From the IMG/VR virus record IMGVR_UViG_3300031521_001337, positions 1-64,000 of that record: a stretch of 64,000 nucleotides of DNA, one strand, 5' to 3'. Below the pieces are notes generated by a model that saw only the letters and a program-made list of their open reading frames with translations, was not told the origin of the DNA and searched no databases. How positions within the stretch are numbered: position 1 is the first letter of the stretch; every line of letters starts with the position of its first letter. The stretch comes from a virus. Both the position numbers and the translations under genes were made by a program. This document shows positions 18,225 through 59,352 of the stretch, piece after piece.

Positions 18225-19036
18225 ATAAAACCTCCCGCTGTTTTTCTTTTACCTTTAGCACATGCTGAAATATTAGCATGATTTATATTTAATTCTTTTT
18301 CTGCATCAGTTATACTAACAAATTCCTTAATAAAAATATTATCTTTTGAATATTGTATTATAGAAATAGTATGAATTCCTTTAGTTGATTGTTTTCCTCT
18401 TTTGCTTTTTTCTGGAATTATATTATCTTTAGAATCAATATAAAATTTTCAAATAAACCCACATGTTGTTAAATTCTTTCCTAAACAAACACTACCTATA
18501 TTTTTAGCACTATAACCTAGTTCTCTTTCAATAATTGCAGCACTTTCTCAAGTTTTTATATATTTTCCAGTTTTATCATATTGATTAACTTTTTTTGAAT
18601 AAGTTTTTTCAGAACTTCCAAATCTTGGATTTAATTCTCCTTTAAATTTTTCAGATTGATTCTTTTTCATATCATCAGTTCAACGATCTTTTTTCTTTTG
18701 AATTTGTTCTTCAGTTTCTTTTACTCCTAATCTATGTTGATTTCCACCACTACATATATTATATCCAGTTTTTACACAATCATATTTTGAAATATATTCA
18801 ATTTCTAATTCATTCAATCTATCTTGTAATTCTGATTTTAATTCGAAATCTATTACTTCTAATATACTATGTTCAAAATTATTAAAACCATATTTCTTAA
18901 TAGCATTAAATAGTTTTTTCTGATTTTTACAATTATGAAATGTTTTATATTCACTCAATCTTTTTTTCATGTTGACTGTTTGTCCAACATAACATTTACC
19001 ACTTGGTGATATTAATTTATATATAAATCCTTTCAT
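18203..19036 (-). CDS. GIY-YIG homing endonuclease with NUMOD modules, 277 aa (TGA read as Trp)
   Basis: GIY-YIG core at residues 3-95: GFIYKLISPSGKCYVGQTVN, then catalytic-type Arg/Glu (YNICSGGNQHRLG region). The rest holds two NUMOD1-like DNA-binding repeats, seen as YDKTGKYIKTWESAAIIERE and CGFIWKFYIDSK, and a final GGFIWKYLME. The NUMOD1 Trp residues are encoded by TGA, confirming the code change inside the mobile gene itself. The last codons overlap the terminase ATG, so the endonuclease sits immediately before terL. It probably spreads itself or its neighbourhood between related phages. Confidence 0.82.
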
Positions 19037-20823: not shown

Positions 20824-21420
20824 TTATAATTTAATGTAATTTAGAAAATTAGGATTAACTAATCTTCTTTGAAGAGTGTTATATTTTATTCCTAATAACT
20901 CTGATGCTTCTTTTAAAGAATCATAGTTAATTCCATCTATATTTATTTTAGTAGTATGTCCTTGTTTAGTTCTATTTTTTGCAGATTCTGATAATTTTTG
21001 TTTATGTTCATCTGTTAAAGTTTTACCTTTTTGAGAATTTTTTATATTTTCACAATGTTCTTTAGATTTTTTAATACCTATTGTAGAATTACTAATTTTA
21101 AGTTTAGTTTCAATAGAATGATTAAAACCTAATGTACTTCCTGCAATTTTTAAAATATTATATTCAGGATTCATTGTATTAATATAATATTGTTCTCTAT
21201 CTAATAGAATTTCTTTCATACATTCACATTCTTCAATAATAGTAAATATAAAAGATTCTTTTCCATATTTATTATATGAATTTTGAAGATGTTGATTTAT
21301 ATGTTTATTATGTTTTAATTTAGAAAAATGCATACATTTTCTATACTCTAAATTATTAGAACTTCCAATATAACATTTATTGTTATTTATATTTCTAATT
21401 AAATATATTCCAGATCTCAT
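20824..21420 (-). CDS. GIY-YIG homing endonuclease, 198 aa
   Basis: N-terminal GIY-YIG nuclease: SGIYLIRNINNNKCYIGSSN and REQYYINTMNPEYNIL. Two NUMOD3-type repeats (GFNHSIETKLKIS, KGKTLTDEHKQKLSES) and a C-terminal helix-turn-helix-like SLKEASELLGIKYNTLQRRL, the IENR1 style. No in-frame TGA. Its ATG overlaps the stop of the upstream gene in TAATG. Inserted between the virion-protein gene and the small gene after groES. Confidence 0.85.
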   Translation of the reverse strand: MRSGIYLIRNINNNKCYIGSSNNLEYRKCMHFSKLKHNKHINQHLQNSYNKYGKESFIFTIIEECECMKEILLDREQYYINTMNPEYNILKIAGSTLGFNHSIETKLKISNSTIGIKKSKEHCENIKNSQKGKTLTDEHKQKLSESAKNRTKQGHTTKINIDGINYDSLKEASELLGIKYNTLQRRLVNPNFLNYIKL

Positions 21421-33414: not shown

Positions 33415-34187
33415 TATAATGTTATTTCGTTATTAGTGTTTTCTTCGTAAGGAGTATATTCTCCTTTAAGTTTCATTTGTTTTCTTAGATGATTTAGTTC
33501 TTGTTCTAATTGATTTACTTTTATATTTAAATCAGTTATTGCAACATCGTGTTCTTTAATTTTACACATAACAAATTGTCCAAACTTAGGAAGATTAAAT
33601 TCAAGTGCTTCACAAGAGTTACCTTCCATATCTGTAGTTGTTCTTCTGTTTATAAAACCAAGTGATTCTAATTCTCGTCTACGTTCTTGTGCTACTGTTT
33701 TAGATATACCTGTTATTTCTGAAATTTCAATATCACTATAAGTAGTTTTACCTATTCCAGTTTCTTTATCAATATATAAATAAGGTTGCATAATCATATA
33801 ATATGATTTCTGTAAACTATTAAGTTCTTTATTTTCGAGGAAACTTAAATCATACATTTCAAACTTGTCGGAATGTGGATTAAATTTATATCCATTTTGA
33901 TTTCGTCCACCTTCCATTTTAATTTTTGTTACATCTCCTGCTTCTTCTAATCTTTTAATTGCAGCTGATACACCACCGACCGACATGTCAATCGAGTCTG
34001 CTATAATTTTTAAGGATATAAATGCCACCATTGTTTTTCCGTCCATATTTTTTCGAAGAAAACCATAAACTAAGACATCAGTATAGTGCTTTTTGTATTT
34101 AGATTTCTTATCACTGTCTACATTGTTAGCGACAGAGTTTGGCACTTGGACGTGTCTATTTGTTTTCTTTTCTTTTTCTTCACTCAT
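33414..34187 (-). CDS. Winged-helix DNA-binding protein, replication initiator or regulator candidate, 257 aa
   Basis: Two winged-helix-like domains: ISLKIIADSIDMSVGGVSAA-IKRLEEAG (residues about 55-85) and DIEISEITGISKTVAQERRR-ELESLGF (about 145-175), then a C-terminal coiled coil KVNQLEQELNHLRKQMKLK. It opens the minus-strand block right beside iteron copy 2 and is the natural candidate to bind the CAAATGATACG array, either to start replication or to switch the divergent operons. The start at 34187 (MSEEKEKKTNRH) is preferred over 34208. No match to a named initiator family can be claimed. Confidence 0.65.
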   Translation of the reverse strand: MSEEKEKKTNRHVQVPNSVANNVDSDKKSKYKKHYTDVLVYGFLRKNMDGKTMVAFISLKIIADSIDMSVGGVSAAIKRLEEAGDVTKIKMEGGRNQNGYKFNPHSDKFEMYDLSFLENKELNSLQKSYYMIMQPYLYIDKETGIGKTTYSDIEISEITGISKTVAQERRRELESLGFINRRTTTDMEGNSCEALEFNLPKFGQFVMCKIKEHDVAITDLNIKVNQLEQELNHLRKQMKLKGEYTPYEENTNNEITL

Positions 34188-34213: not shown

Positions 34214-34326
34214 AGAAATTTGTGTGACAAAAATACTATACACATAGTTAAAAAATGTTAAGTCACTGATATACAATTACTTCGAGCATATCATTTGTAA
34301 TCGGTTAATAGTCAATAAGATAACTC

Positions 34327-34481
34327 CAAATGATACGCAAAAAATCTCAAATGATACGTCGGAATTTTCAAATGATACGCTCGAGTTTGTATGAAAACGG
34401 TTAAGTTATTGTGACACAGTGAATTACAAGGTTTCCATATACTTAATATATACTTAATAATTCTATACTTAATGTGGCTGT
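34327..34481 (+). repeat. 155-bp iteron module, copy 2
   Basis: Second copy of the 1438-1592 module. Three CAAATGATACG units at 21-bp phase plus three TATACTTAAT units. It lies in the divergent intergenic region between the winged-helix gene and the first plus-strand gene, where an origin or master operator is expected. Two further related units (TGATACGCAAAA and GTATCAAACGCAAAA) follow at about 34500. Confidence 0.85.
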
Positions 34482-34748
34482 CCGTAAAACTTTACATATT
34501 GATACGCAAAATTTGTTGTATCAAACGCAAAAGTTTACTATATATACGAACGCGCGCGTAGTAAAATTAATTTTATTAAAAGGTAGAAGATATAAAAAGT
34601 ATTGAAAATAATTTTTAGGAAGTTCTGAATAATTTTTTTTGAAAAAATTTTTTTATTTTTATGAATCGAGTGGGTGGACAGTCATCTCTTCTACCCCCAG
34701 CAGGTCTTGAATGGAAAGTAAACTACTAACAAACAAAACTCTATCATT
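34482..34748. promoter_or_regulatory. Divergent control region / possible origin
   Basis: Very A/T-rich, with additional TGATACGCAAAA-like units at about 34500-34533, an alternating purine-pyrimidine stretch ACGCGCGCG (about 34550) and long A/T tracts (ATTTTTTTTGAAAAAATTTTT around 34629). No gene. Such a mix of repeats, a GC island and an A/T-rich unwinding-like tract fits a replication origin or an early promoter region. Confidence 0.5.
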
Positions 34749-35548: not shown

Positions 35549-35806
35549 AGATGATTATTTAAAAAAATATTTGGGTTGATTGAGAGTAAACGAGCACTGA
35601 CAACGACTCTCAACCACTCCAAAAATAATCCCAATAATCATTCCAACCAAATTTTACATTGAAAACCCTACATATGACAAAACATATTTGGATTGATTAT
35701 GTAATATTATTAACAGAGTGCATATTGTAACAATTCAGTTACAATAGATTTATACAATTGGTATAAGTTTAGGTCCTACGCGATGCTCAAACTCAAAAAC
35801 ATCATA
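35549..35806 (+). other. Structured leader region
   Basis: No gene. Contains an imperfect inverted repeat GGTTGATTGAGAGT / ACTCTCAACC (35573-35621), a perfect hairpin TTGTAAC-AATTCA-GTTACAA (about 35728-35747) and TTATAC-AATTG-GTATAA, followed by AGTTT...AAACTCAAAAAC immediately before the next ATG. The last part matches the leader left by the hammerhead ribozymes further right, but the catalytic core is absent, so it may be a ribozyme remnant. Confidence 0.45.
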
Positions 35807-36100
35807 ATGAAAACATCTGAAGAAAATGCTAAATTAGTTATATCATGTGTTAATAATATCATATCAAAAGAAATTGATTCTTTTAGTAAAATTGAATTAA
35901 CAAAAATTTTAAAAGAAACTAAATGTCCTTATTCGTCAAGTATATTTAATCTTCTCAAATCTTGTGAATTAATCACAAATATATCACGAGGTAAATATAT
36001 ATTTACTACAACTCAACCAATATATTATGGAATTATTCAAAAAGAACTTGATAAAGCTATGAAAATGCAACAAGTTTATAATCATAATTCTAAAAAATAA
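35807..36100 (+). CDS. Winged-helix-like small protein, 97 aa
   Basis: SFSKIELTKILKETKCPYSS, SIFNLLKSCELITNISRGKY and IFTTTQPIYYG have the helix-helix-wing pattern of a small DNA-binding winged helix. The start at 35807 is chosen because CAAACTCAAAAACATCATAATG matches the leaders of other cassettes. Possible early regulator. Confidence 0.55.
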   Translation: MKTSEENAKLVISCVNNIISKEIDSFSKIELTKILKETKCPYSSSIFNLLKSCELITNISRGKYIFTTTQPIYYGIIQKELDKAMKMQQVYNHNSKK

Positions 36101-36169
36101 AACAATATATATTATTCATTTAAGTAATTTTGAACGTTGGTATTAGTCATTGTAAAATGATAACATACA

Positions 36170-36257
36170 ACTCAGCTAGAGAGAGTATAACATTGGTTTC
36201 CGATGAGATCTAGACGAAACGAGAGAATAAGAGGAAACTCTAAAACTCTCGTAAAAC
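36170..36257 (+). ncRNA. Hammerhead ribozyme A
   Basis: Elements in order: 5' hairpin ACTC/GAGT (36170-36173, 36183-36186) with CTAGA in its loop; stem I GTTT (36196-36199); core CCGATGA (36200-36206); loop II containing TCTAG, complementary to CTAGA; GAAA (36216-36219); stem III ACGAGAG/CTCTCGT (36219-36225, 36246-36252) capped by an inner AGAG-GAAA-CTCT; cleavage triplet GTA with the cut after 36253; stem I AAAC. Core position 4 is C instead of U, which should slow cleavage. The 3' product begins AAACTCAAAACACAT before the next ATG. Confidence 0.75.
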
Positions 36258-36274
36258 TCAAAACACATATCACA

Positions 36275-36373
36275 ATGAATAAAACTGTATATTTAGCATC
36301 ATCTAGTGATGCACGTCACACATTACACAAAGTTTATAAATCTTATAAACCAGGTAATAATGGAAAAAATTAA
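36275..36373 (+). CDS. Tiny protein, 32 aa
   Basis: MNKTVYLASSSDARHTLHKV, then YKSYKPGNNGKN. First ATG after ribozyme A's cleaved leader; overlaps the next gene by 14 bases. A similar tiny first gene follows ribozyme D (41385). Function unknown. Confidence 0.45.
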   Translation: MNKTVYLASSSDARHTLHKVYKSYKPGNNGKN

Positions 36374-36635
36374 GGTTGATTTCAAATCACAAACTTTAGA
36401 GATTATATCTAATATAACTGTAAAAGAGTTATTAGCTATTACAAATGCTGTTGATCTTTCAAGTTTTACAATAATTAGTTCAATAAATAAGCTTGAAATT
36501 ACAGGTGTTAGAACTGAATCTGAGAATATTATAATTCTTAAGAGTCTAGGTTATTATACAAATAAAGTAATTGCTGAAAAACTTGGATTAAGTGAACGAA
36601 CAGTTTATCGTAAACTAAAAGAATTAGGTATTTAA
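36360..36635 (+). CDS. Small HTH protein, 91 aa
   Basis: C-terminal helix-turn-helix YYTNKVIAEKLGLSERTVYR-KLKELGI, of the LuxR/MerR-like tri-helical type. The N-terminal part, SQTLEIISNITVKELLAITN, may be a dimerisation domain. Possible transcription regulator of the ribozyme-led cassettes. Confidence 0.6.
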   Translation: MEKIKVDFKSQTLEIISNITVKELLAITNAVDLSSFTIISSINKLEITGVRTESENIIILKSLGYYTNKVIAEKLGLSERTVYRKLKELGI

Positions 36636-36648
36636 TCACACACTTTTG

Positions 36649-36681
36649 AGTCTCCGAAAGCCGTAAGGTGATTAGGAGATT
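36649..36681 (+). other. Cassette-end hairpin with GNRA tetraloop
   Basis: Outer stem AGTCTCC/GGAGATT, asymmetric internal loop, inner stem GCC-GTAA-GGT. Same architecture as hairpins at 40234 and 63769, each just after a stop and shortly before the next gene. Confidence 0.5.
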
Positions 36682-36699
36682 TATTAAACTTATTAAATT

Positions 36700-36927
36700 A
36701 TGATAATAACAATTTATCTCATTGGAATTCCGTTATTCCCATTCATTATTATGCTTTTCACAAAGTTCTTTCCAAATGTTTTAGAATGTGATGATCCTGC
36801 TGATTATGCATTGGGTTATGGAATGATGTCATTATTTTGGCCATTTGTATTATTTGTTGCATCAATAGGTATAATCTATTATAAGTTTTATCAAATGATA
36901 AATACTATAGATAAACATAAAAAGTAG
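36700..36927 (+). CDS. Small membrane protein, 75 aa
   Basis: Two membrane helices (LIGIPLFPFIIMLFTKFFP and MMSLFWPFVLFVASIGIIYY) with an acidic connection. A broken paralogue follows at 37295. Trp is TGG here and TGA at the equivalent site in the paralogue. Function unknown. Confidence 0.6.
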   Translation: MIITIYLIGIPLFPFIIMLFTKFFPNVLECDDPADYALGYGMMSLFWPFVLFVASIGIIYYKFYQMINTIDKHKK

Positions 36928-36941
36928 CAATACTCTCTCAT

Positions 36942-37014
36942 AAACATAATTGAAAAAATCATTAGATCTGATGGTTTTTAGTACGGTACAGATATCCCGG
37001 GTTCAATTATGTTT
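36942..37014 (+). ncRNA. Structured RNA element, long hairpin
   Basis: A 13-bp stem AAACATAATTGAA / TTCAATTATGTTT closes an internal hairpin (AAAATCATTAGATCTGATGG-TTTT) and a second region GTACGGTAC...CCCGG. No coding potential. Function unknown; it precedes another structured element. Confidence 0.5.
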
Positions 37015-37022
37015 ACTTTCAT

Positions 37023-37106
37023 AAAAGACTTATGATTTGATTAACCGTCGTCCGACGGTGTTGCATACGGTGCATAATAGTCCGGAGCCTATCATGAGTC
37101 TTTTTT
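37023..37106 (+). ncRNA. Structured RNA element with T-run, possible terminator or ribozyme-like
   Basis: Outer stem AAAAGACTTATGAT / ATCATGAGTCTTTTTT, inside it CCGTCG-TC-CGACGG and TGCAT-ACGG-TGCA. The T-run at the 3' end would allow termination, but the multi-branched inside is more elaborate than a normal terminator. Confidence 0.5.
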
Positions 37107-37201
37107 ACAATATACATTCCTCATCAGTCTGTATTTCTTTCTAATTATCATTATTTCTATCCCAACTATATTTAGTATTACAGTGATGTAAGAACAATAT
37201 G

Positions 37202-37278
37202 ACTCAGCCTAGGAGAGTATAACATCAGTTTCTGAAGAGACTAGGACGAAACGGGGAGCTCATCACTCCCGTCAAACT
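37202..37278 (+). ncRNA. Hammerhead ribozyme B
   Basis: 5' hairpin ACTC/GAGT with CCTAG in its loop (37208-37212); stem I AGTTT (37227-37231); core CTGAAGA (37232-37238, fully consistent with C-U-G-A-N-G-A); loop II containing CTAGG, complementary to CCTAG; GAAA (37248-37251); stem III ACGGGGAG/CTCCCGT; cleavage triplet GTC with the cut after 37273; stem I AAACT (37274-37278). All conserved residues present. Confidence 0.85.
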
Positions 37279-37294
37279 CAAAAACTTATTTATT

Positions 37295-37506
37295 ATGATA
37301 ACATTAATCATTATTTATATTATTGGATTAATATTATGTCCAATATTATTACTTGTATTAGAATATAATTTTCCTGGTAGTATGTATTTAAATAACGGTC
37401 AAAATATCGGAGCATTTTTACAACATCATTAATTTGACCAATAGGTTTAATAATAATGGCAATATTTTTATTTGATCATATTGCATCTAATATTCATAAA
37501 AATTAA
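37295..37506 (+). pseudogene. Small membrane protein, frameshifted (paralogue of the 75-aa protein)
   Basis: The first frame encodes MITLIIIYIIGLILCPILLL through GAFLQHH then TAA (37432). The second half is in another frame, SLIWPIGLIIMAIFLFDHIA, ending TAA at 37506 and matching SLFWPFVLFVASIGIIYY of the 75-residue protein, with Trp as TGA. A one-base indel near 37420-37430 (poly-T or CATCATTAA), a sequencing error, or programmed frameshifting could explain it. Confidence 0.5.
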
Positions 37507-37510
37507 TCAA

Positions 37511-37693
37511 ATGCTAAACATAATATTAATTACAATCGTTATCATTTTAATAGTGGTAATGGTTGCAATTTTAGTAGCTCTTATAGTTGATGTATTTACA
37601 TACTTTAAATTACCAAAGATATGTATATTATATGGTATTATAATACTATTATTAATTGTTAACATTGCTATTCATTTAGAAAAATCAGTTTAA
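37511..37693 (+). CDS. Tiny membrane protein, 60 aa
   Basis: Two hydrophobic helices: ILITIVIILIVVMVAILVAL and CILYGIIILLLIVNIAIHLE. Start at 37511 avoids overlap with the preceding gene remnant. Function unknown. Confidence 0.55.
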   Translation: MLNIILITIVIILIVVMVAILVALIVDVFTYFKLPKICILYGIIILLLIVNIAIHLEKSV

Positions 37694-37694
37694 A

Positions 37695-37964
37695 ATGAAA
37701 TTAAAAATCTTTATTATTAATATTGTTGTAGCAATAGTATTAATTGTTTCTTTTACTGCATGTAATTCTCAATCAAGAAGACATGCTCCAGTATTATCAA
37801 AAACTTACACAATAACTTACAAAGGATATCTTTCTGGTAAGTTTCTAAAACGTTCTACATTCATTAGTGCTCGTACTCCAATTGAAGCTGTACAAATACT
37901 TAAAGAACAAACGTTTGTTGGATTCGATAGTATTAGTGTTAACTCAATTAGACCTAAAGAATAA
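37695..37964 (+). CDS. Lipoprotein, 89 aa
   Basis: Signal peptide with lipobox IVSFTACNSQS (Cys 23). Periplasmic part TYTITYKGYLSGKFLKRSTF, ARTPIEAVQILKEQTFVG. Ends one base over the next ATG. A phage lipoprotein of this kind may act in superinfection exclusion or envelope remodelling; this is inference. Confidence 0.65.
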   Translation: MKLKIFIINIVVAIVLIVSFTACNSQSRRHAPVLSKTYTITYKGYLSGKFLKRSTFISARTPIEAVQILKEQTFVGFDSISVNSIRPKE

Positions 37965-38236
37965 TGATTAAAATTATTGTTAATATTATTGTAATAGTTT
38001 TGGTTATTATTCTTTTACGAGTATTAACATCTTGTGAAGCAAGAAGTGGGCATATGCATCAAGCTACAAAACCCACAATTGCTACACAAGTTGAATCAAT
38101 AACTAAACCAAAACATAAATTGGTTTACACATATTACATCACACACATTAAATCTCGGGATAAAATCAAGGTTTATGTGTATGATGATGATATAACATCG
38201 TACGAGTATCCAATTGATAAATTTAAAATCAAATAA
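37964..38236 (+). CDS. Lipoprotein, 90 aa
   Basis: Signal peptide IIVNIIVIVLVIILLRVLTS then Cys 25 with lipobox VLTSC. Mature part has KHKLVYTYYITHIKSRDKIK. Overlaps the previous stop by one base; same cassette and same design as its neighbour, possibly an ancient duplicate. Confidence 0.62.
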   Translation: MIKIIVNIIVIVLVIILLRVLTSCEARSGHMHQATKPTIATQVESITKPKHKLVYTYYITHIKSRDKIKVYVYDDDITSYEYPIDKFKIK

Positions 38237-38238
38237 TC

Positions 38239-38406
38239 ATGATAATATTATTATTACTTTTATTATGTTTCGATATATTTCTAACAAGAAAATATTATAT
38301 TGAAAAAGATCTTACAGGTGTATTACTTGGAGGTTTTGCGTGTGGATTTATAATGTGTGGGATTGTACTTATGTTGTGTATTAAGTTTCACATTCCATTA
38401 CAATAA
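38239..38406 (+). CDS. Tiny membrane protein, 55 aa
   Basis: MIILLLLLLCFDIFLTRKYY, then GVLLGGFACGFIMCGIVLML: two helices. Shares the CFDIF(L/M) motif with the 47-residue protein at 38993, so the two are probable paralogues. Confidence 0.5.
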   Translation: MIILLLLLLCFDIFLTRKYYIEKDLTGVLLGGFACGFIMCGIVLMLCIKFHIPLQ

Positions 38407-38408
38407 TC

Positions 38409-38702
38409 ATGGTACTATTCTTATTAATTGTTGGATATTTATTATCCATTGTTCTGTGTAGTGTCTTATATAGAATTGCATCTCCGAAGTATTTAGATAT
38501 ATTTAGTAAATATGAAGCTGAATGTGATTTTATGTGGTTTATTCCTGGAATAAATACATTAATAGTGATATTTATGATTGGATTATTATTAATTGTTTTT
38601 ATCTGTATGTTATGCGATAAACTCATAAAAAGAGTTCGCTTTAATATCCGATTTAAATGGTTAGATAATTTCATCACCAAATTTAAAAATGAAGATCTAT
38701 AA
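38409..38702 (+). CDS. Small membrane protein, 97 aa
   Basis: Two helices: LFLLIVGYLLSIVLCSVLYR and MWFIPGINTLIVIFMIGLLL with VFICMLC. Basic C-terminus. Its stop overlaps the next ATG (TAATG). Confidence 0.55.
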   Translation: MVLFLLIVGYLLSIVLCSVLYRIASPKYLDIFSKYEAECDFMWFIPGINTLIVIFMIGLLLIVFICMLCDKLIKRVRFNIRFKWLDNFITKFKNEDL

Positions 38703-38821
38703 TGTTAACTAAAACTCAAGCAATAGTAATTTGTTTATCACCGTTCTTAATCTTCTATTTATTTGTAGAATTGTGTGCAATGTTTATATCAATAGAATGT
38801 AAAATCAAAAAACATGACTAA
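38702..38821 (+). CDS. Tiny membrane protein, 39 aa
   Basis: MLTKTQAIVICLSPFLIFYL, then FVELCAMFISIE: one or two helices. Linked by TAATG to the upstream gene and overlapping the next. It resembles the next protein (LTKTQ / MTKTEKT, PFLIFYL / PWIIFYL). Confidence 0.48.
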   Translation: MLTKTQAIVICLSPFLIFYLFVELCAMFISIECKIKKHD

Positions 38822-38993
38822 AACTGAAAAAACTCTATTATACATTGCACCATGGATTATCTTTTACTTGTTAGGTTCATTTATTGGACTACAATTCAAT
38901 ATTATCAAATGGCAAGAAGAATCACGAATGGGATATGTAATGCTTTCTTTACTTATTGATTGTGGAATATTAATGTTTAAATACATAAGCTAA
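38814..38993 (+). CDS. Tiny membrane protein, 59 aa
   Basis: MTKTEKTLLYIAPWIIFYLL, then GYVMLSLLIDCGILMF: two helices. Probable paralogue of the previous gene. Linked by TAATG to the next. Confidence 0.5.
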   Translation: MTKTEKTLLYIAPWIIFYLLGSFIGLQFNIIKWQEESRMGYVMLSLLIDCGILMFKYIS

Positions 38994-39136
38994 TGGTAAT
39001 TATACTCAGTCTATGTTTAGCATTTGATATATTTATGGGATTAATATGTTTTGATAAAGAAAATCATATTATGTCGCATTTATATGCTGCCGCAGCTGGA
39101 TTTTTATTAGCTGCAATTATTGTAAATATACTTTAA
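38993..39136 (+). CDS. Tiny membrane protein, 47 aa
   Basis: MVIILSLCLAFDIFMGLICF, then LYAAAAGFLLAAIIVNIL: two helices. Last gene of this cassette before the large structured RNA. Confidence 0.48.
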   Translation: MVIILSLCLAFDIFMGLICFDKENHIMSHLYAAAAGFLLAAIIVNIL

Positions 39137-39143
39137 ACTCTTA

Positions 39144-39688
39144 GCATCAAGCAACTTTCATCAGATAAACGGTTGGATATGTATATTCTCTATATAATAA
39201 CGTTATAAATAATATAATCTCTTATATAAGAAGCATATCTGAATAACTAATCAAGAAGAGATTCAGTATGGTGGTTTGATGCCTTTAAACAGTATAATAC
39301 TAACTGCAAATAAGTATAATGAAAACCTGTGCGCAATCCTCCGATGAAAGTGTGGAACTTCCGAGTGTAAGGTATAACGGCTATATGTACAAATAGCATC
39401 CATTCTGTCAATCCTTGAAGACAAATTAATAAAAGATAGGTATACTAAAACCGATGCCGTGCTAATTGCTGGTGTCAAAAACAAGCCAACGTAATATCGT
39501 CCTGAAACTGGCTATGGGAGCAAAAGGGTGAAGCTCTTTATTACGAAAGAATGCTTCCCGGTTAGATTCACCGATTTTATCGGTGATGTACCGCGAAGTA
39601 AACAATGGTTATCATATTAATTTTGATAACAAACACTAAGGGAGTACACATCGTCGCATTTGGACATATAGTGTGTACTCTCTTTTTT
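39144..39688 (+). ncRNA. Large structured non-coding RNA candidate, about 545 nt
   Basis: No reading frame on the plus strand. Many compatible stems: GCATCAA (39144-39150) with TTGATGC (39276-39282) enclosing GATATG/CATATC and CTCTATATAA/TTATATAAG; GGGAGCA/TGCTTCCC around 39513-39576; ACCGA-TTTTA-TCGGT; GTTATCA/TGATAAC; and a final strong terminator. Size, ornate structure and phage context resemble the GOLLD/ROOL type of large phage RNAs, but I cannot confirm membership. Confidence 0.6.
39639..39688 (+). terminator. Terminator of the large RNA
   Basis: GGGAGTACACA ... TGTGTACTCTC then TTTTTT, 11-bp stem. Confidence 0.85.
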
Positions 39689-39692
39689 ATTA

Positions 39693-39760
39693 ACTCAACC
39701 AGTAGAGTATAAAATAGTTTCTGATGAGACTGGACGAAATATGTTTAAACATATCAAACT
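39693..39760 (+). ncRNA. Hammerhead ribozyme C
   Basis: 5' hairpin ACTC/GAGT (39693-39696, 39705-39708) with CCAGT in the loop; stem I AGTTT (39716-39720); perfect core CTGATGA (39721-39727); loop II with ACTGG, complementary to CCAGT; GAAA (39736-39739); stem III a palindromic hairpin ATATGTTTAAACATAT (39739-39754); cleavage triplet ATC with the cut after 39755; stem I AAACT. It starts 5 bases after the preceding terminator, so it is the first element of a new transcript or of read-through RNA. Confidence 0.88.
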
Positions 39761-39777
39761 CAAAAACAAATAAGATT

Positions 39778-39954
39778 ATGTCAAAAACTAAATCAATCAT
39801 CGCCATAACAGGTAACAATGTAAAAGTAGAAATAATATCAGGTTTAACTCCAAGACAAGCAGCTTATCAAAGAAGAGAGCTTGCTACATCCGAAGAAAAC
39901 TTTGATATGTTAGGTAAAACATGTGCAATTTATCGTACTAAAACTTGTAAGTAA
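39778..39954 (+). CDS. Small protein, 58 aa
   Basis: MSKTKSIIAITGNNVKVEII, then GLTPRQAAYQRRELATSEEN, DMLGKTCAIYRTKTCK. Start at 39778, downstream of the ribozyme; a longer frame would start inside the ribozyme core. Stop overlaps the next ATG. Function unknown. Confidence 0.6.
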   Translation: MSKTKSIIAITGNNVKVEIISGLTPRQAAYQRRELATSEENFDMLGKTCAIYRTKTCK

Positions 39955-40031
39955 TGAAACTATTTAAAGCTATTGCTATTGTAATAATGTGTGTGTCAGT
40001 TGGATTATTTATCTTAACACTATTTAAATAA
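39954..40031 (+). CDS. Single-helix micro-protein, 25 aa
   Basis: MKLFKAIAIVIMCVSVGLFI, then LTLFK: one membrane helix. Linked by TAATG on both sides, which supports translation. Confidence 0.45.
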   Translation: MKLFKAIAIVIMCVSVGLFILTLFK

Positions 40032-40225
40032 TGCATATCACATTCGAACCCGCATTTGGAGTATTGTTGATTGTTATCGCTCATACAATAATAACCCATT
40101 TATTTAATTGGTTACATCGTGTCGTACTTAAAGAATTCGAGATTTTCGTAATATTTATAGGATTATTTCATTTTTGTGAAGTAATGTTTGTATTTGCTAT
40201 GTTAACCGGTCTTTATTTAAAGTAA
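40031..40225 (+). CDS. Small membrane protein, 64 aa
   Basis: Helices AFGVLLIVIAHTIITHLF and FVIFIGLFHFCEVMFVFAML. Starts at the stop of the previous micro-protein. Function unknown. Confidence 0.55.
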   Translation: MHITFEPAFGVLLIVIAHTIITHLFNWLHRVVLKEFEIFVIFIGLFHFCEVMFVFAMLTGLYLK

Positions 40226-40233
40226 ACTCTTTC

Positions 40234-40269
40234 GAGTTTCCAAACCATAGAAATATGGGGAGGAAACTC
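40234..40269 (+). other. Cassette-end hairpin with GAAA tetraloop
   Basis: Outer stem GAGTTTCC/GGAAACTC (8 bp), internal loop AAA/GGGG-like, inner CCATA-GAAA-TATGG. Same design as 36649 and 63769. Partial terminator function is possible (T-run TTTT follows). Confidence 0.55.
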
Positions 40270-40282
40270 TTTTAATCTAATT

Positions 40283-40356
40283 AGTGTGTAAGATAGGTAC
40301 ATTAGGTGTACGCGCTACAGTTGGTAATTCTTATAAAAGGTGCAACCTTTCACACT
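40283..40356 (+). ncRNA. tRNA-like or other structured leader RNA
   Basis: Closing stem AGTGTG/CACACT, a D-arm-like GTAC-ATTAGGT-GTAC, and a T-arm-like AAAGG-TGCAA-CCTTT, with no clear anticodon arm. It lies 18 bases before the next gene. Could be a tRNA mimic, a degraded tRNA or a cis-acting leader. Confidence 0.35.
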
Positions 40357-40374
40357 TATTTCAAAACTTAAAAT

Positions 40375-40683
40375 ATGAATAAAATTACATTAAATAAAAG
40401 TTATGAATGTGATATATTAATTAGAGTATATGAATCACAAAATCCAAATGTACCTGAAAGTGATCAAATTGTAGGTGAAGTTTTATTTAAAGATAAACCT
40501 CATATTAGAGCATCTGCTTGGCTTCCAAAAGGTATTGCTGAATTTATAAATTCTGAACTATTAAAAATAGAAGATAAAAATTATAATATTCATATTTCTA
40601 ATGAATTACCATATCAAGTTGGAGTTCTCACTTCATGTAAAGAAAATTTTGATTTATATATGAATAAATTATTAAATAAATAA
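40375..40683 (+). CDS. Hypothetical protein, 102 aa
   Basis: Soluble alpha/beta: YECDILIRVYESQNPNVPES, GEVLFKDKPHIRASAWLPKG, YQVGVLTSCKENFDLYMNKL. No known domain. Preceded by the tRNA-like leader. Confidence 0.6.
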   Translation: MNKITLNKSYECDILIRVYESQNPNVPESDQIVGEVLFKDKPHIRASAWLPKGIAEFINSELLKIEDKNYNIHISNELPYQVGVLTSCKENFDLYMNKLLNK

Positions 40684-40690
40684 AAACAAA

Positions 40691-41179
40691 ATGGATTATA
40701 TTAAACTCTTTTATTGGCTCACAGTAGTCGATGGTTTCAAACATGTACTTTTAGGAGTATTAATTATCTTCGGAATTCTTTTAGCACTCAATGTTATATT
40801 GAAGCTGGTTTCATTTATCGAAAGTGATGAAGATTTAAATGATCGTTGTAGTAAACCTTTACGTTGGATAATTCCAATATTCTCAATTTGTTTACTTGCT
40901 CATGCATTCATACCAAGTAAAAAAGATACGTTGTTAATCATTGGTGGTGGAACTGCTATGAATTATGTTACAACTGATTCAACATGTAAACAAATTCCTA
41001 AAGAACTAAGTACATTTGTTATATCCGAATTAAAAGCAATGTCTGCGGATGCTAAAACAAGCTTAGGTGTTGTCGATCAACAAAATAAATTACTTGATGA
41101 AGCCAAGAAAATGTCTTCTAAAGAACTCATTGAGAAAATGAAGAATGATACATCATTTGCTAAAATTCTCTTAAAATAA
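40691..41179 (+). CDS. Two-helix membrane protein with soluble C-terminus, 162 aa
   Basis: Membrane helices VLLGVLIIFGILLALNVILK and PLRWIIPIFSICLLAHAFIP, then a periplasmic or cytoplasmic helix-rich tail (SADAKTSLGVVDQQNKLLDE). Seven bases after the previous stop. Ends before a strong terminator. Function unknown. Confidence 0.6.
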   Translation: MDYIKLFYWLTVVDGFKHVLLGVLIIFGILLALNVILKLVSFIESDEDLNDRCSKPLRWIIPIFSICLLAHAFIPSKKDTLLIIGGGTAMNYVTTDSTCKQIPKELSTFVISELKAMSADAKTSLGVVDQQNKLLDEAKKMSSKELIEKMKNDTSFAKILLK

Positions 41180-41268
41180 TTAAGCCATAGTTAGTATTTG
41201 TAAATTTTTATTGGATTTATACAGAACATTGTGAAATGTGAAGTATATTAGTATTATTATTTGATTTA

Positions 41269-41300
41269 AACGCAGCGGTTATAACGTCCGCTGCGTTTTT
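41269..41300 (+). terminator. Strong terminator
   Basis: AACGCAGCGG, 9-base loop, CCGCTGCGTT plus T-run. 10-bp GC-rich stem. Confidence 0.93.
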
Positions 41301-41305
41301 ATTCA

Positions 41306-41370
41306 CCTCATCCAGAAGAGGCTAAAAAGTTTACTGAAGAGGCTGGACGAAACACATTATGTATAAACTC
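41306..41370 (+). ncRNA. Hammerhead ribozyme D (weaker)
   Basis: 5' hairpin is CCTC/GAGG, a compensatory change from ACTC/GAGT in A-C, with CCAG in the loop; core CTGAAGA (41334-41340); loop II with CTGG, complementary to CCAG; GAAA (41349-41352); stem III ACACAT/ATGTAT with one C-A mismatch; stem I GTTT/AAAC with an extra A. The covariation supports a conserved structure, but the mismatch and bulge suggest reduced activity. Confidence 0.6.
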
Positions 41371-41384
41371 AAAACAAATTAAAA

Positions 41385-41531
41385 ATGGAAAAAACTATTG
41401 TATTATCCGAAGTGGTTACTAAACACAAAAAGGTTAAAGCAGGTAAAATATTAACCTCATCTCAAAATGAAAAGCAAATTATGCGTAAAGCATGGAATGC
41501 AAAGTCTGATACTTTAATATCTTACAAGTAA
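41385..41531 (+). CDS. Tiny basic protein, 48 aa
   Basis: MEKTIVLSEVVTKHKKVKAG, then KILTSSQNEKQIMRKAWNAK. First gene after ribozyme D; resembles in position and style the 32-residue protein after ribozyme A. Ends 1 base before the next ATG. Confidence 0.5.
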   Translation: MEKTIVLSEVVTKHKKVKAGKILTSSQNEKQIMRKAWNAKSDTLISYK

Positions 41532-58908: not shown

Positions 58909-58971
58909 ACTCCACTAAGGGAGTATAAAGTTATTAAGCTTAGTGCGTTACACAATTCGTGTAGGTTAAAC
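58909..58971 (+). ncRNA. Degenerate hammerhead-like element
   Basis: Hairpin ACTCC/GGAGT with CACTAAG complementary to downstream CTTAGTG, followed by TACAC-AATTC-GTGTA and AAAC: the same layout as ribozymes A-D including GAGTATAA. The catalytic core C-U-G-A-N-G-A and GAAA are missing, so it is a dead or diverged relative. Confidence 0.45.
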
Positions 58972-58989: not shown

Positions 58990-59352
58990 ATGTATGATGT
59001 AACAAATTTAGTAGAGGTTATTAAATTAGCCCATGAATGTGAAACCCCAATTGATGAATTCACATTATTAGTTGAAAAAGAATTAACAAAACTTCACCCA
59101 ATTAAACATGAAGAACGAAAATCAGAAGAAGCATTAGGTATTCGTGATTTACGTAATGTTTTACCACAAGGTGAATTTGCCGGTAAACTTTCAGTTGCCG
59201 TTGAACAAATTGAAAAAACAATGACCAAACGTGAAACTGCGTATGCATTAGTTTGTTCAATTGCACAAATAACAAAAATATCACAACATCCACTTGTTAA
59301 AATGATTATGAAATCACAACAAGAAGATGGTGAAGATTTTAGAGATGAATAG
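58990..59352 (+). CDS. Hypothetical protein, 120 aa (paralogue family member 1)
   Basis: Helical: VEVIKLAHECETPIDEFTLL, VAVEQIEKTMTKRETAYALV-like block (KLSVAVEQIEKTMTKRETAY). Paralogue at 59779 shares IEKT(L/M)TKRE and a further partial copy starts at 63856. Ends in TAG. No known function. Confidence 0.6.
   Translation: MYDVTNLVEVIKLAHECETPIDEFTLLVEKELTKLHPIKHEERKSEEALGIRDLRNVLPQGEFAGKLSVAVEQIEKTMTKRETAYALVCSIAQITKISQHPLVKMIMKSQQEDGEDFRDE

What the first reader, a model, noticed from the sequence alone, without database searches (positions are those of the whole stretch)
35728..41384. Ribozyme-punctuated early cassettes with one common mRNA leader
Four or five cassettes of tiny genes each start with a hammerhead whose 3' product begins AAACTCAAAA(C), shortly before the first ATG; a further leader at 35787 has the same end without a core. 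A family of related ribozymes with a conserved 5' kissing hairpin, covarying between copies, appears to process the polycistronic RNA into uniform 5'-OH mRNAs. I know of no description of such serial use in a phage.
Basis: inference. Interest (0 to 1): 0.87.

Follow-up and report, generated by a model that had tools for sequence, protein, structure and literature searches.

The report
Ribozyme array with shared mRNA leader
A large phage of Bacteroidota-type bacteria carries four known-class self-cleaving hammerhead ribozymes, plus one conserved RNA structure of no known family, each about 20 bases before a small gene and each followed by the same short leader, so its RNA is probably cut into separate messages with identical front ends.

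Summary
Four hammerheads lie at 36169, 37201, 39692 and 41305 (+). All are RAGATH-1, the pseudoknot hammerheads (Rfam RF03152); two exceed Rfam's cut-off. Predicted 3' products are AAACUCAAAA(A)C for three copies and UAAACUCAAAAC for the fourth. Each start codon lies 21-22 nt downstream. Five of the seven plus-strand AAACTCAAAA copies in 213 kb fall here (P ~6e-11).

Serial use is not new: Perreault et al. 2011 described clustered hammerheads flanking prophage genes and mapped cleavage upstream of a halovirus gene.

(1) The 'coreless' leader is not coreless. 35715-35795 is a compact RNA supported by covariation, with no Rfam match. I found seven copies in six phages. Two were recovered by a covariance model not trained on them. 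Hammerheads occur in three of those phages and a twister in a fourth. It lies at the head of the rightward module in three related phages. It may be an undescribed ribozyme class; cleavage is untested.
(2) The leader is shared across phages and RNA classes, and precedes several start codons without a ribozyme in a cousin phage. It is a separate gene-start element whose first bases double as the ribozyme's stem strand.

Self-cleavage, 5'-OH ends and early expression are inferred.

The parts
35715..35795 (+). W5-type structured RNA, no Rfam family; P1-GCAWA-P2-P3-UAGRUCC-NNN-GCGAWGC-UYAA-P1'; candidate new ribozyme class
   Evidence: model R1 64.9 bits, only copy in the genome; covariation; no Rfam match
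35789..35806 (+). common leader AAACTCAAAAACATCATA before ORF 35807-36100
   Evidence: sequence; genome-wide count
36169..36258 (+). PK hammerhead copy 1; predicted cut after 36253 (GUA); core CCGAUGA has C for U4; stem III CGAGAG/CTCTCG
   Evidence: RF03152 36.2 bits, E 0.0032; parser
36254..36274 (+). leader AAACTCAAAACACATATCACA before 32-aa ORF 36275-36373
   Evidence: sequence
37201..37278 (+). PK hammerhead copy 2; predicted cut after 37273 (GUC)
   Evidence: RF03152 59.4 bits, above cut-off
37274..37294 (+). leader AAACTCAAAAACTTATTTATT before ORF 37295-37432
   Evidence: sequence
39638..39688 (+). terminator-like hairpin with T-run, ending 3 nt before copy 3
   Evidence: -20.5 kcal/mol, z -5.6
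39692..39760 (+). PK hammerhead copy 3; predicted cut after 39755 (AUC)
   Evidence: RF03152 67.6 bits, E 3e-9
39756..39777 (+). leader AAACTCAAAAACAAATAAGATT before ORF 39778-39954
   Evidence: sequence
41268..41300 (+). terminator-like hairpin (11 bp) with T-run, ending 4 nt before copy 4
   Evidence: -19.6 kcal/mol, z -5.5
41305..41368 (+). PK hammerhead copy 4; predicted cut after 41363 (GUA); stem III only about 3 pairs, activity uncertain
   Evidence: RF03152 50.0 bits, below cut-off, E 3e-6
41364..41384 (+). leader TAAACTCAAAACAAATTAAAA before ORF 41385-41531
   Evidence: sequence
58909..58970 (+). Pistol ribozyme just before ORF 58990-59352 (same arrangement, other class, other leader)
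   Evidence: RF02679 41.6 bits, above cut-off; sequence

Best explanation
This is a rightward module of tiny genes in a large Bacteroidota-type phage whose translation units begin with a common A-rich leader, (A)AACUCAAAA(A)C, 18-22 nt before the start codon. In front of four leaders sits a pseudoknot (RAGATH-1) hammerhead. It cuts immediately 5' of the leader, using the leader's first five bases as its stem I strand. That detaches upstream RNA (terminator hairpins, structured non-coding RNA, preceding cistrons) and leaves a short, weakly structured, probably 5'-OH leader. In front of the fifth leader sits a different conserved RNA that also uses the leader's ACUC as its closing-stem strand and probably plays an equivalent part. 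Shown: the sequences, structures, covariation, placement, leader conservation and homologues. Inferred: cleavage in vivo, the 5'-OH end, and the benefit (setting mRNA ends and separating mRNAs from read-through or upstream RNA in hosts that initiate translation without Shine-Dalgarno pairing).
For: Four RF03152 matches, only in this 5.2-kb stretch of 213 kb. Kissing-helix and stem I covariation over 21 copies from many phages. Start-codon placement enriched family-wide (13 vs 4.7, P 2e-4) and T-runs just upstream of the ribozyme (8 vs 1.35, P 3e-5). Leader at five sites where 0.024 is expected. Same leader after a hammerhead in phage G100 (|AAACTCAAAAAAAAGTTTTATG) and, with a compensated stem I (AGUGU/ACACU), in the cousin (|ACACTCAAAAATA). 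Same leader after the W5-type RNA in G000, the cousin and G064. A pistol ribozyme in the same phage has the same placement. No Shine-Dalgarno signal (8 vs 8.0 expected) and A-rich start regions; closest cultured relatives by one marker protein are Cellulophaga phages. Precedent for cleavage of such clusters: PMC3088659; fast PK hammerhead with crystal structure: PMC11300833.
Against: No RNA data. Copy 1 has a core substitution and copy 4 a very short stem III, so one or both may be weak or dead; two of four are below Rfam's cut-off. Terminators before copies 3 and 4 argue that not all cassettes come from one long transcript. Several leaders in the cousin have no ribozyme (one directly follows a stop codon), so the leader does not need cleavage. 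In Prevotella a hairpin about 20 nt upstream of the start did not reduce translation (PMC3155529), so freeing the leader may not be the benefit. Modelled accessibility rises clearly only for copies 1 and 4.
Confidence: 0.7

Rival explanations
1. The leader is purely a translation-start element of this phage lineage. The hammerheads serve the upstream RNA, making its 3' end or destabilising read-through, and the shared product sequence arises because stem I must pair with the leader next to it.
For: Leader without ribozyme at several cousin genes, where ACTCAAAA is the most enriched 8-mer before starts. Ribozymes lie next to terminators and structured non-coding RNA.
Against: A consistent distance to the start codon, and enrichment of start codons downstream in unrelated phages, point to a role for the downstream mRNA too.
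Confidence: 0.2
2. The hammerheads are spread by duplication as near-neutral passengers, and the common leader is just the copied tail of the repeat.
For: Copies 1/2 and 3/4 are 75% identical over 57 nt; two copies look imperfect.
Against: Stem III is wholly diverged while the adjacent 10-nt leader is identical; kissing helices covary; a fifth leader follows a different RNA class; other phages have the same arrangement.
Confidence: 0.07
3. The W5-type RNA (35715-35795) is not a ribozyme but a cis-regulator, such as a protein-binding translational operator that masks the leader.
For: The leader's ACUC is paired in the predicted structure, and in G000 and the cousin the next ORFs are homologous (31% identity, E 4e-13).
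Against: Downstream genes in the other phages (L303, L331, G064, G100) look unrelated by eye, as for ribozymes; it co-occurs with hammerhead, pistol and twister.
Confidence: 0.5

Closest known systems
RAGATH-1 / pseudoknot hammerhead ribozyme (RF03152; structure PDB 8YDC, PMC11300833)
   Same: Core, stems I and III, 5' stem-loop kissing the stem II loop, AUAAAA-type linker; four matches.
   Different: Four copies in one phage module with a shared product leader; copy 1 has a core substitution, copy 4 a minimal stem III.
Clustered prophage hammerheads and the halovirus HF1/HF2 hammerhead (Perreault et al. 2011, PMC3088659)
   Same: Several hammerheads around single genes or short gene blocks, proposed to cut long phage transcripts; in HF1/HF2 one lies 13 nt before a start codon with a matching 5' end.
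   Different: That work (as read here) does not describe a common leader across copies or a second RNA class sharing it.
Pistol ribozyme (RF02679)
   Same: Present once in the same phage at 58909, just before an ORF; close structural analogue of the PK hammerhead (PMC11300833).
   Different: Different core; not followed by the AAACUC leader.
Twister-sister ribozyme (RF02681), considered for the W5-type RNA
   Same: Superficial resemblance from memory: GCAAG-like 5' side and GCUC|A-like 3' side next to P1.
   Different: No match in any of six phage records even at E = 10.
HDV-like theta ribozymes of gut phages (PMC10879173)
   Same: Self-cleaving RNAs used by Bacteroidota phages in RNA processing.
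   Different: They process tRNA 3' ends; different structure.

Membership tests
RAGATH-1 pseudoknot hammerhead (RF03152) | Catalytic core CUGANGA ... GAAA ... NUH | tested here: met
   Copies 2, 3 and 4 intact; copy 1 has CCGAUGA (C for U4), a deviation
RAGATH-1 pseudoknot hammerhead (RF03152) | 5' stem-loop kissing the stem II loop | tested here: met
   All four can form it; covariation over 21 copies
RAGATH-1 pseudoknot hammerhead (RF03152) | Score above the curated cut-off of 56.3 bits | tested here: inconclusive
   67.6 and 59.4 above; 50.0 and 36.2 below though significant in 8 kb
RAGATH-1 pseudoknot hammerhead (RF03152) | Self-cleavage | not testable with these tools
   needs in vitro transcription
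Hammerhead-punctuated phage transcripts (Perreault 2011 type) | Several hammerheads flanking single genes or short gene blocks on one strand | tested here: met
   four on + within 5.2 kb, each before a tiny-gene block
Twister-sister (RF02681), for the W5-type RNA | Match to the family model | tested here: not met
   no hit at E 10 in six records
Any Rfam 15 family, for the W5-type RNA | Match to any of 4227 models | tested here: not met
   only a spurious opposite-strand S15 match at E 6.4; none for the G100 copy
Self-cleaving ribozyme, for the W5-type RNA | Site-specific self-cleavage | not testable with these tools
   only association and placement support it

The most novel reading that the evidence does not exclude
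The RNA at 35715-35795 belongs to an undescribed class of small self-cleaving ribozyme: seven copies in six phages, helices supported by covariation, found beside hammerhead and twister ribozymes. In these phages several unrelated ribozyme classes cut just before one shared mRNA leader, a ribozyme-made start for phage messages.
Probability: 0.33. Interest if true: 0.87.

Novelty: new variant of a known kind. Interest (0 to 1): 0.62.

Why it matters
What ribozymes scattered through phage genomes do is still open. Here one module places four of them, and a conserved unknown RNA, directly against the same leader of successive genes, which turns the question into a direct 5'-end mapping and mutation experiment. 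If the unknown RNA also cleaves, it adds a ribozyme class and shows different ribozymes serving one function. A shared leader in hosts that do not use Shine-Dalgarno pairing is also a lead on how such phages mark their genes for translation.

Tried and rejected
Own hammerhead covariance model: not built, because Rfam's model already found all four copies. Bacteroidota promoter motifs (TTTG-N16-23-TANNTTTG): exactly the chance number, no evidence either way; sigma-70 scan also at chance. Loose leader pattern GACGAAA-N6-36-AAACTCAAAA in viral contigs: swamped by chance. Twister-sister and every Rfam family for the W5-type RNA: no match. W5 pattern in bacterial genomes: four hits, all judged chance. 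Hammerhead + AAACTCAAA pattern: only this phage and G100 look real; the others look like coding sequence by eye. No nucleotide relatives in the annotated phage collection. IMG/VR contigs 3300030339_000026 and 3300028734_000023 proved to be the same phage, so not independent evidence. MAFFT failed on the W5 family with full hairpins, so A4 was made from hand-trimmed hairpins; this favours the structure, hence the weight on two copies found outside training. First Pfam/PHROGs attempts failed on wrong coordinates.
Full report
WHAT IS THERE. The window is bases 1-64000 of a 213,486-base viral record. Leftward genes (tail fibre, GroEL, exonuclease, ribonucleotide reductase, replication initiator) end at 34187. 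A rightward run of tiny genes begins near 34.7 kb. Rfam places four RAGATH-1 hammerheads in that run, at 36169, 37201, 39692 and 41305, all on +, and no others in the whole record. RAGATH-1 is the pseudoknot hammerhead, whose 5' stem-loop kisses the stem II loop. In each copy the kissing strands are complementary: CTAGA/TCTAG, CCTAG/CTAGG, CCAGT/ACTGG, TCCAG/CTGGA. Over 21 copies from many phages, kissing strands pair with their own partner far better than with others (0.94 vs 0.71), and stem I likewise (0.97 vs 0.43); no shuffle of 20,000 was as good in either case.

QUALITY OF THE COPIES. Copies 2 and 3 look fully competent. Copy 1 has CCGAUGA for CUGAUGA and a GUA triplet, with a strong stem III. 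Copy 4 has a full core but a stem III of about three pairs, like a copy in another phage (L197), and is best read as cutting GUA|UAAACUC, so its product has one extra U. No claim of activity is made for copies 1 and 4.

THE LEADER. The predicted products begin AAACUCAAAA(A)C and reach the start codon in 21-22 nt. AAACTCAAAA occurs seven times on + in 213 kb; five lie in 35789-41365, where 0.024 are expected. The first five bases are demanded by stem I; CAAAA is not. In a cousin phage (records G011 and G045, 99.9% identical to each other) the hammerhead's stem I is AGUGU/ACACU, yet the product still reads ACACUCAAAAA. In that phage ACTCAAAA is the most enriched 8-mer before gene starts, and AACTCAAAA stands before several start codons with no ribozyme, once directly after a stop codon. 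An unrelated-looking phage, G100, has a further hammerhead, not found by Rfam, with product AAACTCAAAAAAAAGTTTTATG, and a RAGATH-1 copy with product AACTCAAACAAATAATTATG. The leader is therefore an element in its own right, onto which ribozymes are fitted.

THE 'CORELESS' LEADER. The leader at 35789 follows a conserved structure. 35705-35799 is 77% identical to the cousin at the head of its module, before a homologous ORF (31%, E 4e-13). Pattern searches found three more phage copies (L303, L312 = G100, L331). The consensus is P1 (variable)-GCAWA-P2 hairpin-P3 hairpin-UAGRUCC-NNN-GCGAWGC-UYAA-P1'. On a five-member alignment, hand-trimmed inside hairpins, 96% of cells pair and 13 of 20 pairs show changes on both sides, with 0 of 500 shuffles as good. 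The covariance model built from it finds one copy in this genome (64.9 bits) and two copies it was not trained on: G064 (61.6 bits), followed by AAACTCAAAAAAATATACTGATATG, and a second G100 copy (34.1 bits), followed by AAACTTAAAAAAAACCAATAATTATG. About 95 other phage records gave no strong match. With all seven copies fitted, 94% of cells pair and 14 of 20 pairs have double changes. P3 may instead close with GRU/RUC, which all seven can form. Rfam has no match and twister-sister is excluded at E 10. Known ribozymes lie close by on the same strand in G100 (hammerheads), the cousin (hammerhead) and L303 (twister-P3 at 48.1 bits, weak pistol). Guilt by such association is how RAGATH, pistol and hatchet candidates were originally found (from memory of Weinberg et al. 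2015, not held here). In this genome, the cousin and G064 it sits at the head of the rightward module next to the same leftward replication gene.

ARCHITECTURE AND MECHANISM. Copies 3 and 4 start 3-4 nt after strong terminator-like hairpins (-20.5 and -19.6 kcal/mol, z about -5.5). Over 28 RAGATH-1 copies, T-runs within 25 nt upstream are six-fold enriched and ORF starts 10-50 nt downstream nearly three-fold. A pistol ribozyme at 58909 is placed the same way before ORF 58990. The phage shows no Shine-Dalgarno signal, as in Bacteroidota (PMC3155529; PMC6847099, abstract), and its marker protein is closest, among isolates, to Cellulophaga phages. I take the hammerheads to cut read-through or upstream RNA off each gene block, leaving a short leader. 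That the cut helps translation is uncertain: in Prevotella a hairpin about 20 nt upstream did not hurt, and modelled accessibility rises clearly for only two copies. Separation of transcripts, defined ends or stability are equally possible benefits.

PRIOR ART AND NOVELTY. Perreault et al. 2011 already reported several hammerheads flanking single genes or short gene blocks in prophages, proposed processing into operon- or gene-length mRNAs, showed cleavage of such clusters in vitro and in one case in E. coli, and noted a halovirus hammerhead 13 nt before a start codon whose site matches the mapped 5' end. The hammerhead array is therefore a new example of a known arrangement. New here are the shared leader fitted to several RNA classes and the W5-type RNA.

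LIMITS. All evidence is sequence-based. Viral scans were exact-pattern scans with caps, so the family size is a lower bound. Family-wide null models use random positions in the same loci.

Noticed in passing
window 58909-58970: Pistol ribozyme above Rfam's cut-off directly before a 120-aa ORF at 58990; same placement as the hammerheads.
   Followed up: partly
window 36929-37106: Structured non-coding stretch ending in a T-run; 37054-37090 is 89% identical to L017:7394-7430 upstream of the cousin's hammerhead. Possible small RNA.
   Followed up: partly
window 39137-39690: About 550 nt without a convincing gene, ending in a strong terminator; possible structured non-coding RNA with no strong Rfam match (weak RAGATH-7, E 0.6).
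   Followed up: no
window 36636-36699 and 40222-40375: Two further hairpin-rich leaders before small genes; 40230-40268 is 82% identical to L017:8674-8712 at a comparable place in the cousin.
   Followed up: no
window 34320-34530: Repeated TGATACGC-like iterons between the replication gene and the rightward module; a 155-bp stretch recurs at 1438-1592 (98.7%). Possible origin or regulator sites.
   Followed up: no
G100 (IMGVR_UViG_3300013094_000027) 78469-85041: A second mixed array: two W5-type RNAs, one hammerhead missed by Rfam (80229) and one RAGATH-1 hammerhead within 6.6 kb.
   Followed up: partly
G002 (IMGVR_UViG_2974731385_000001) both contig ends: Four RAGATH-1 matches near the two ends of a 96.7-kb phage contig, one a non-standard variant with a long stem II loop (L212); two may be the same copy across a terminal repeat.
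   Followed up: no
window 18680-19036 and 20824-21420 (-): ORFs whose N-termini look like GIY-YIG homing endonucleases by eye.
   Followed up: no
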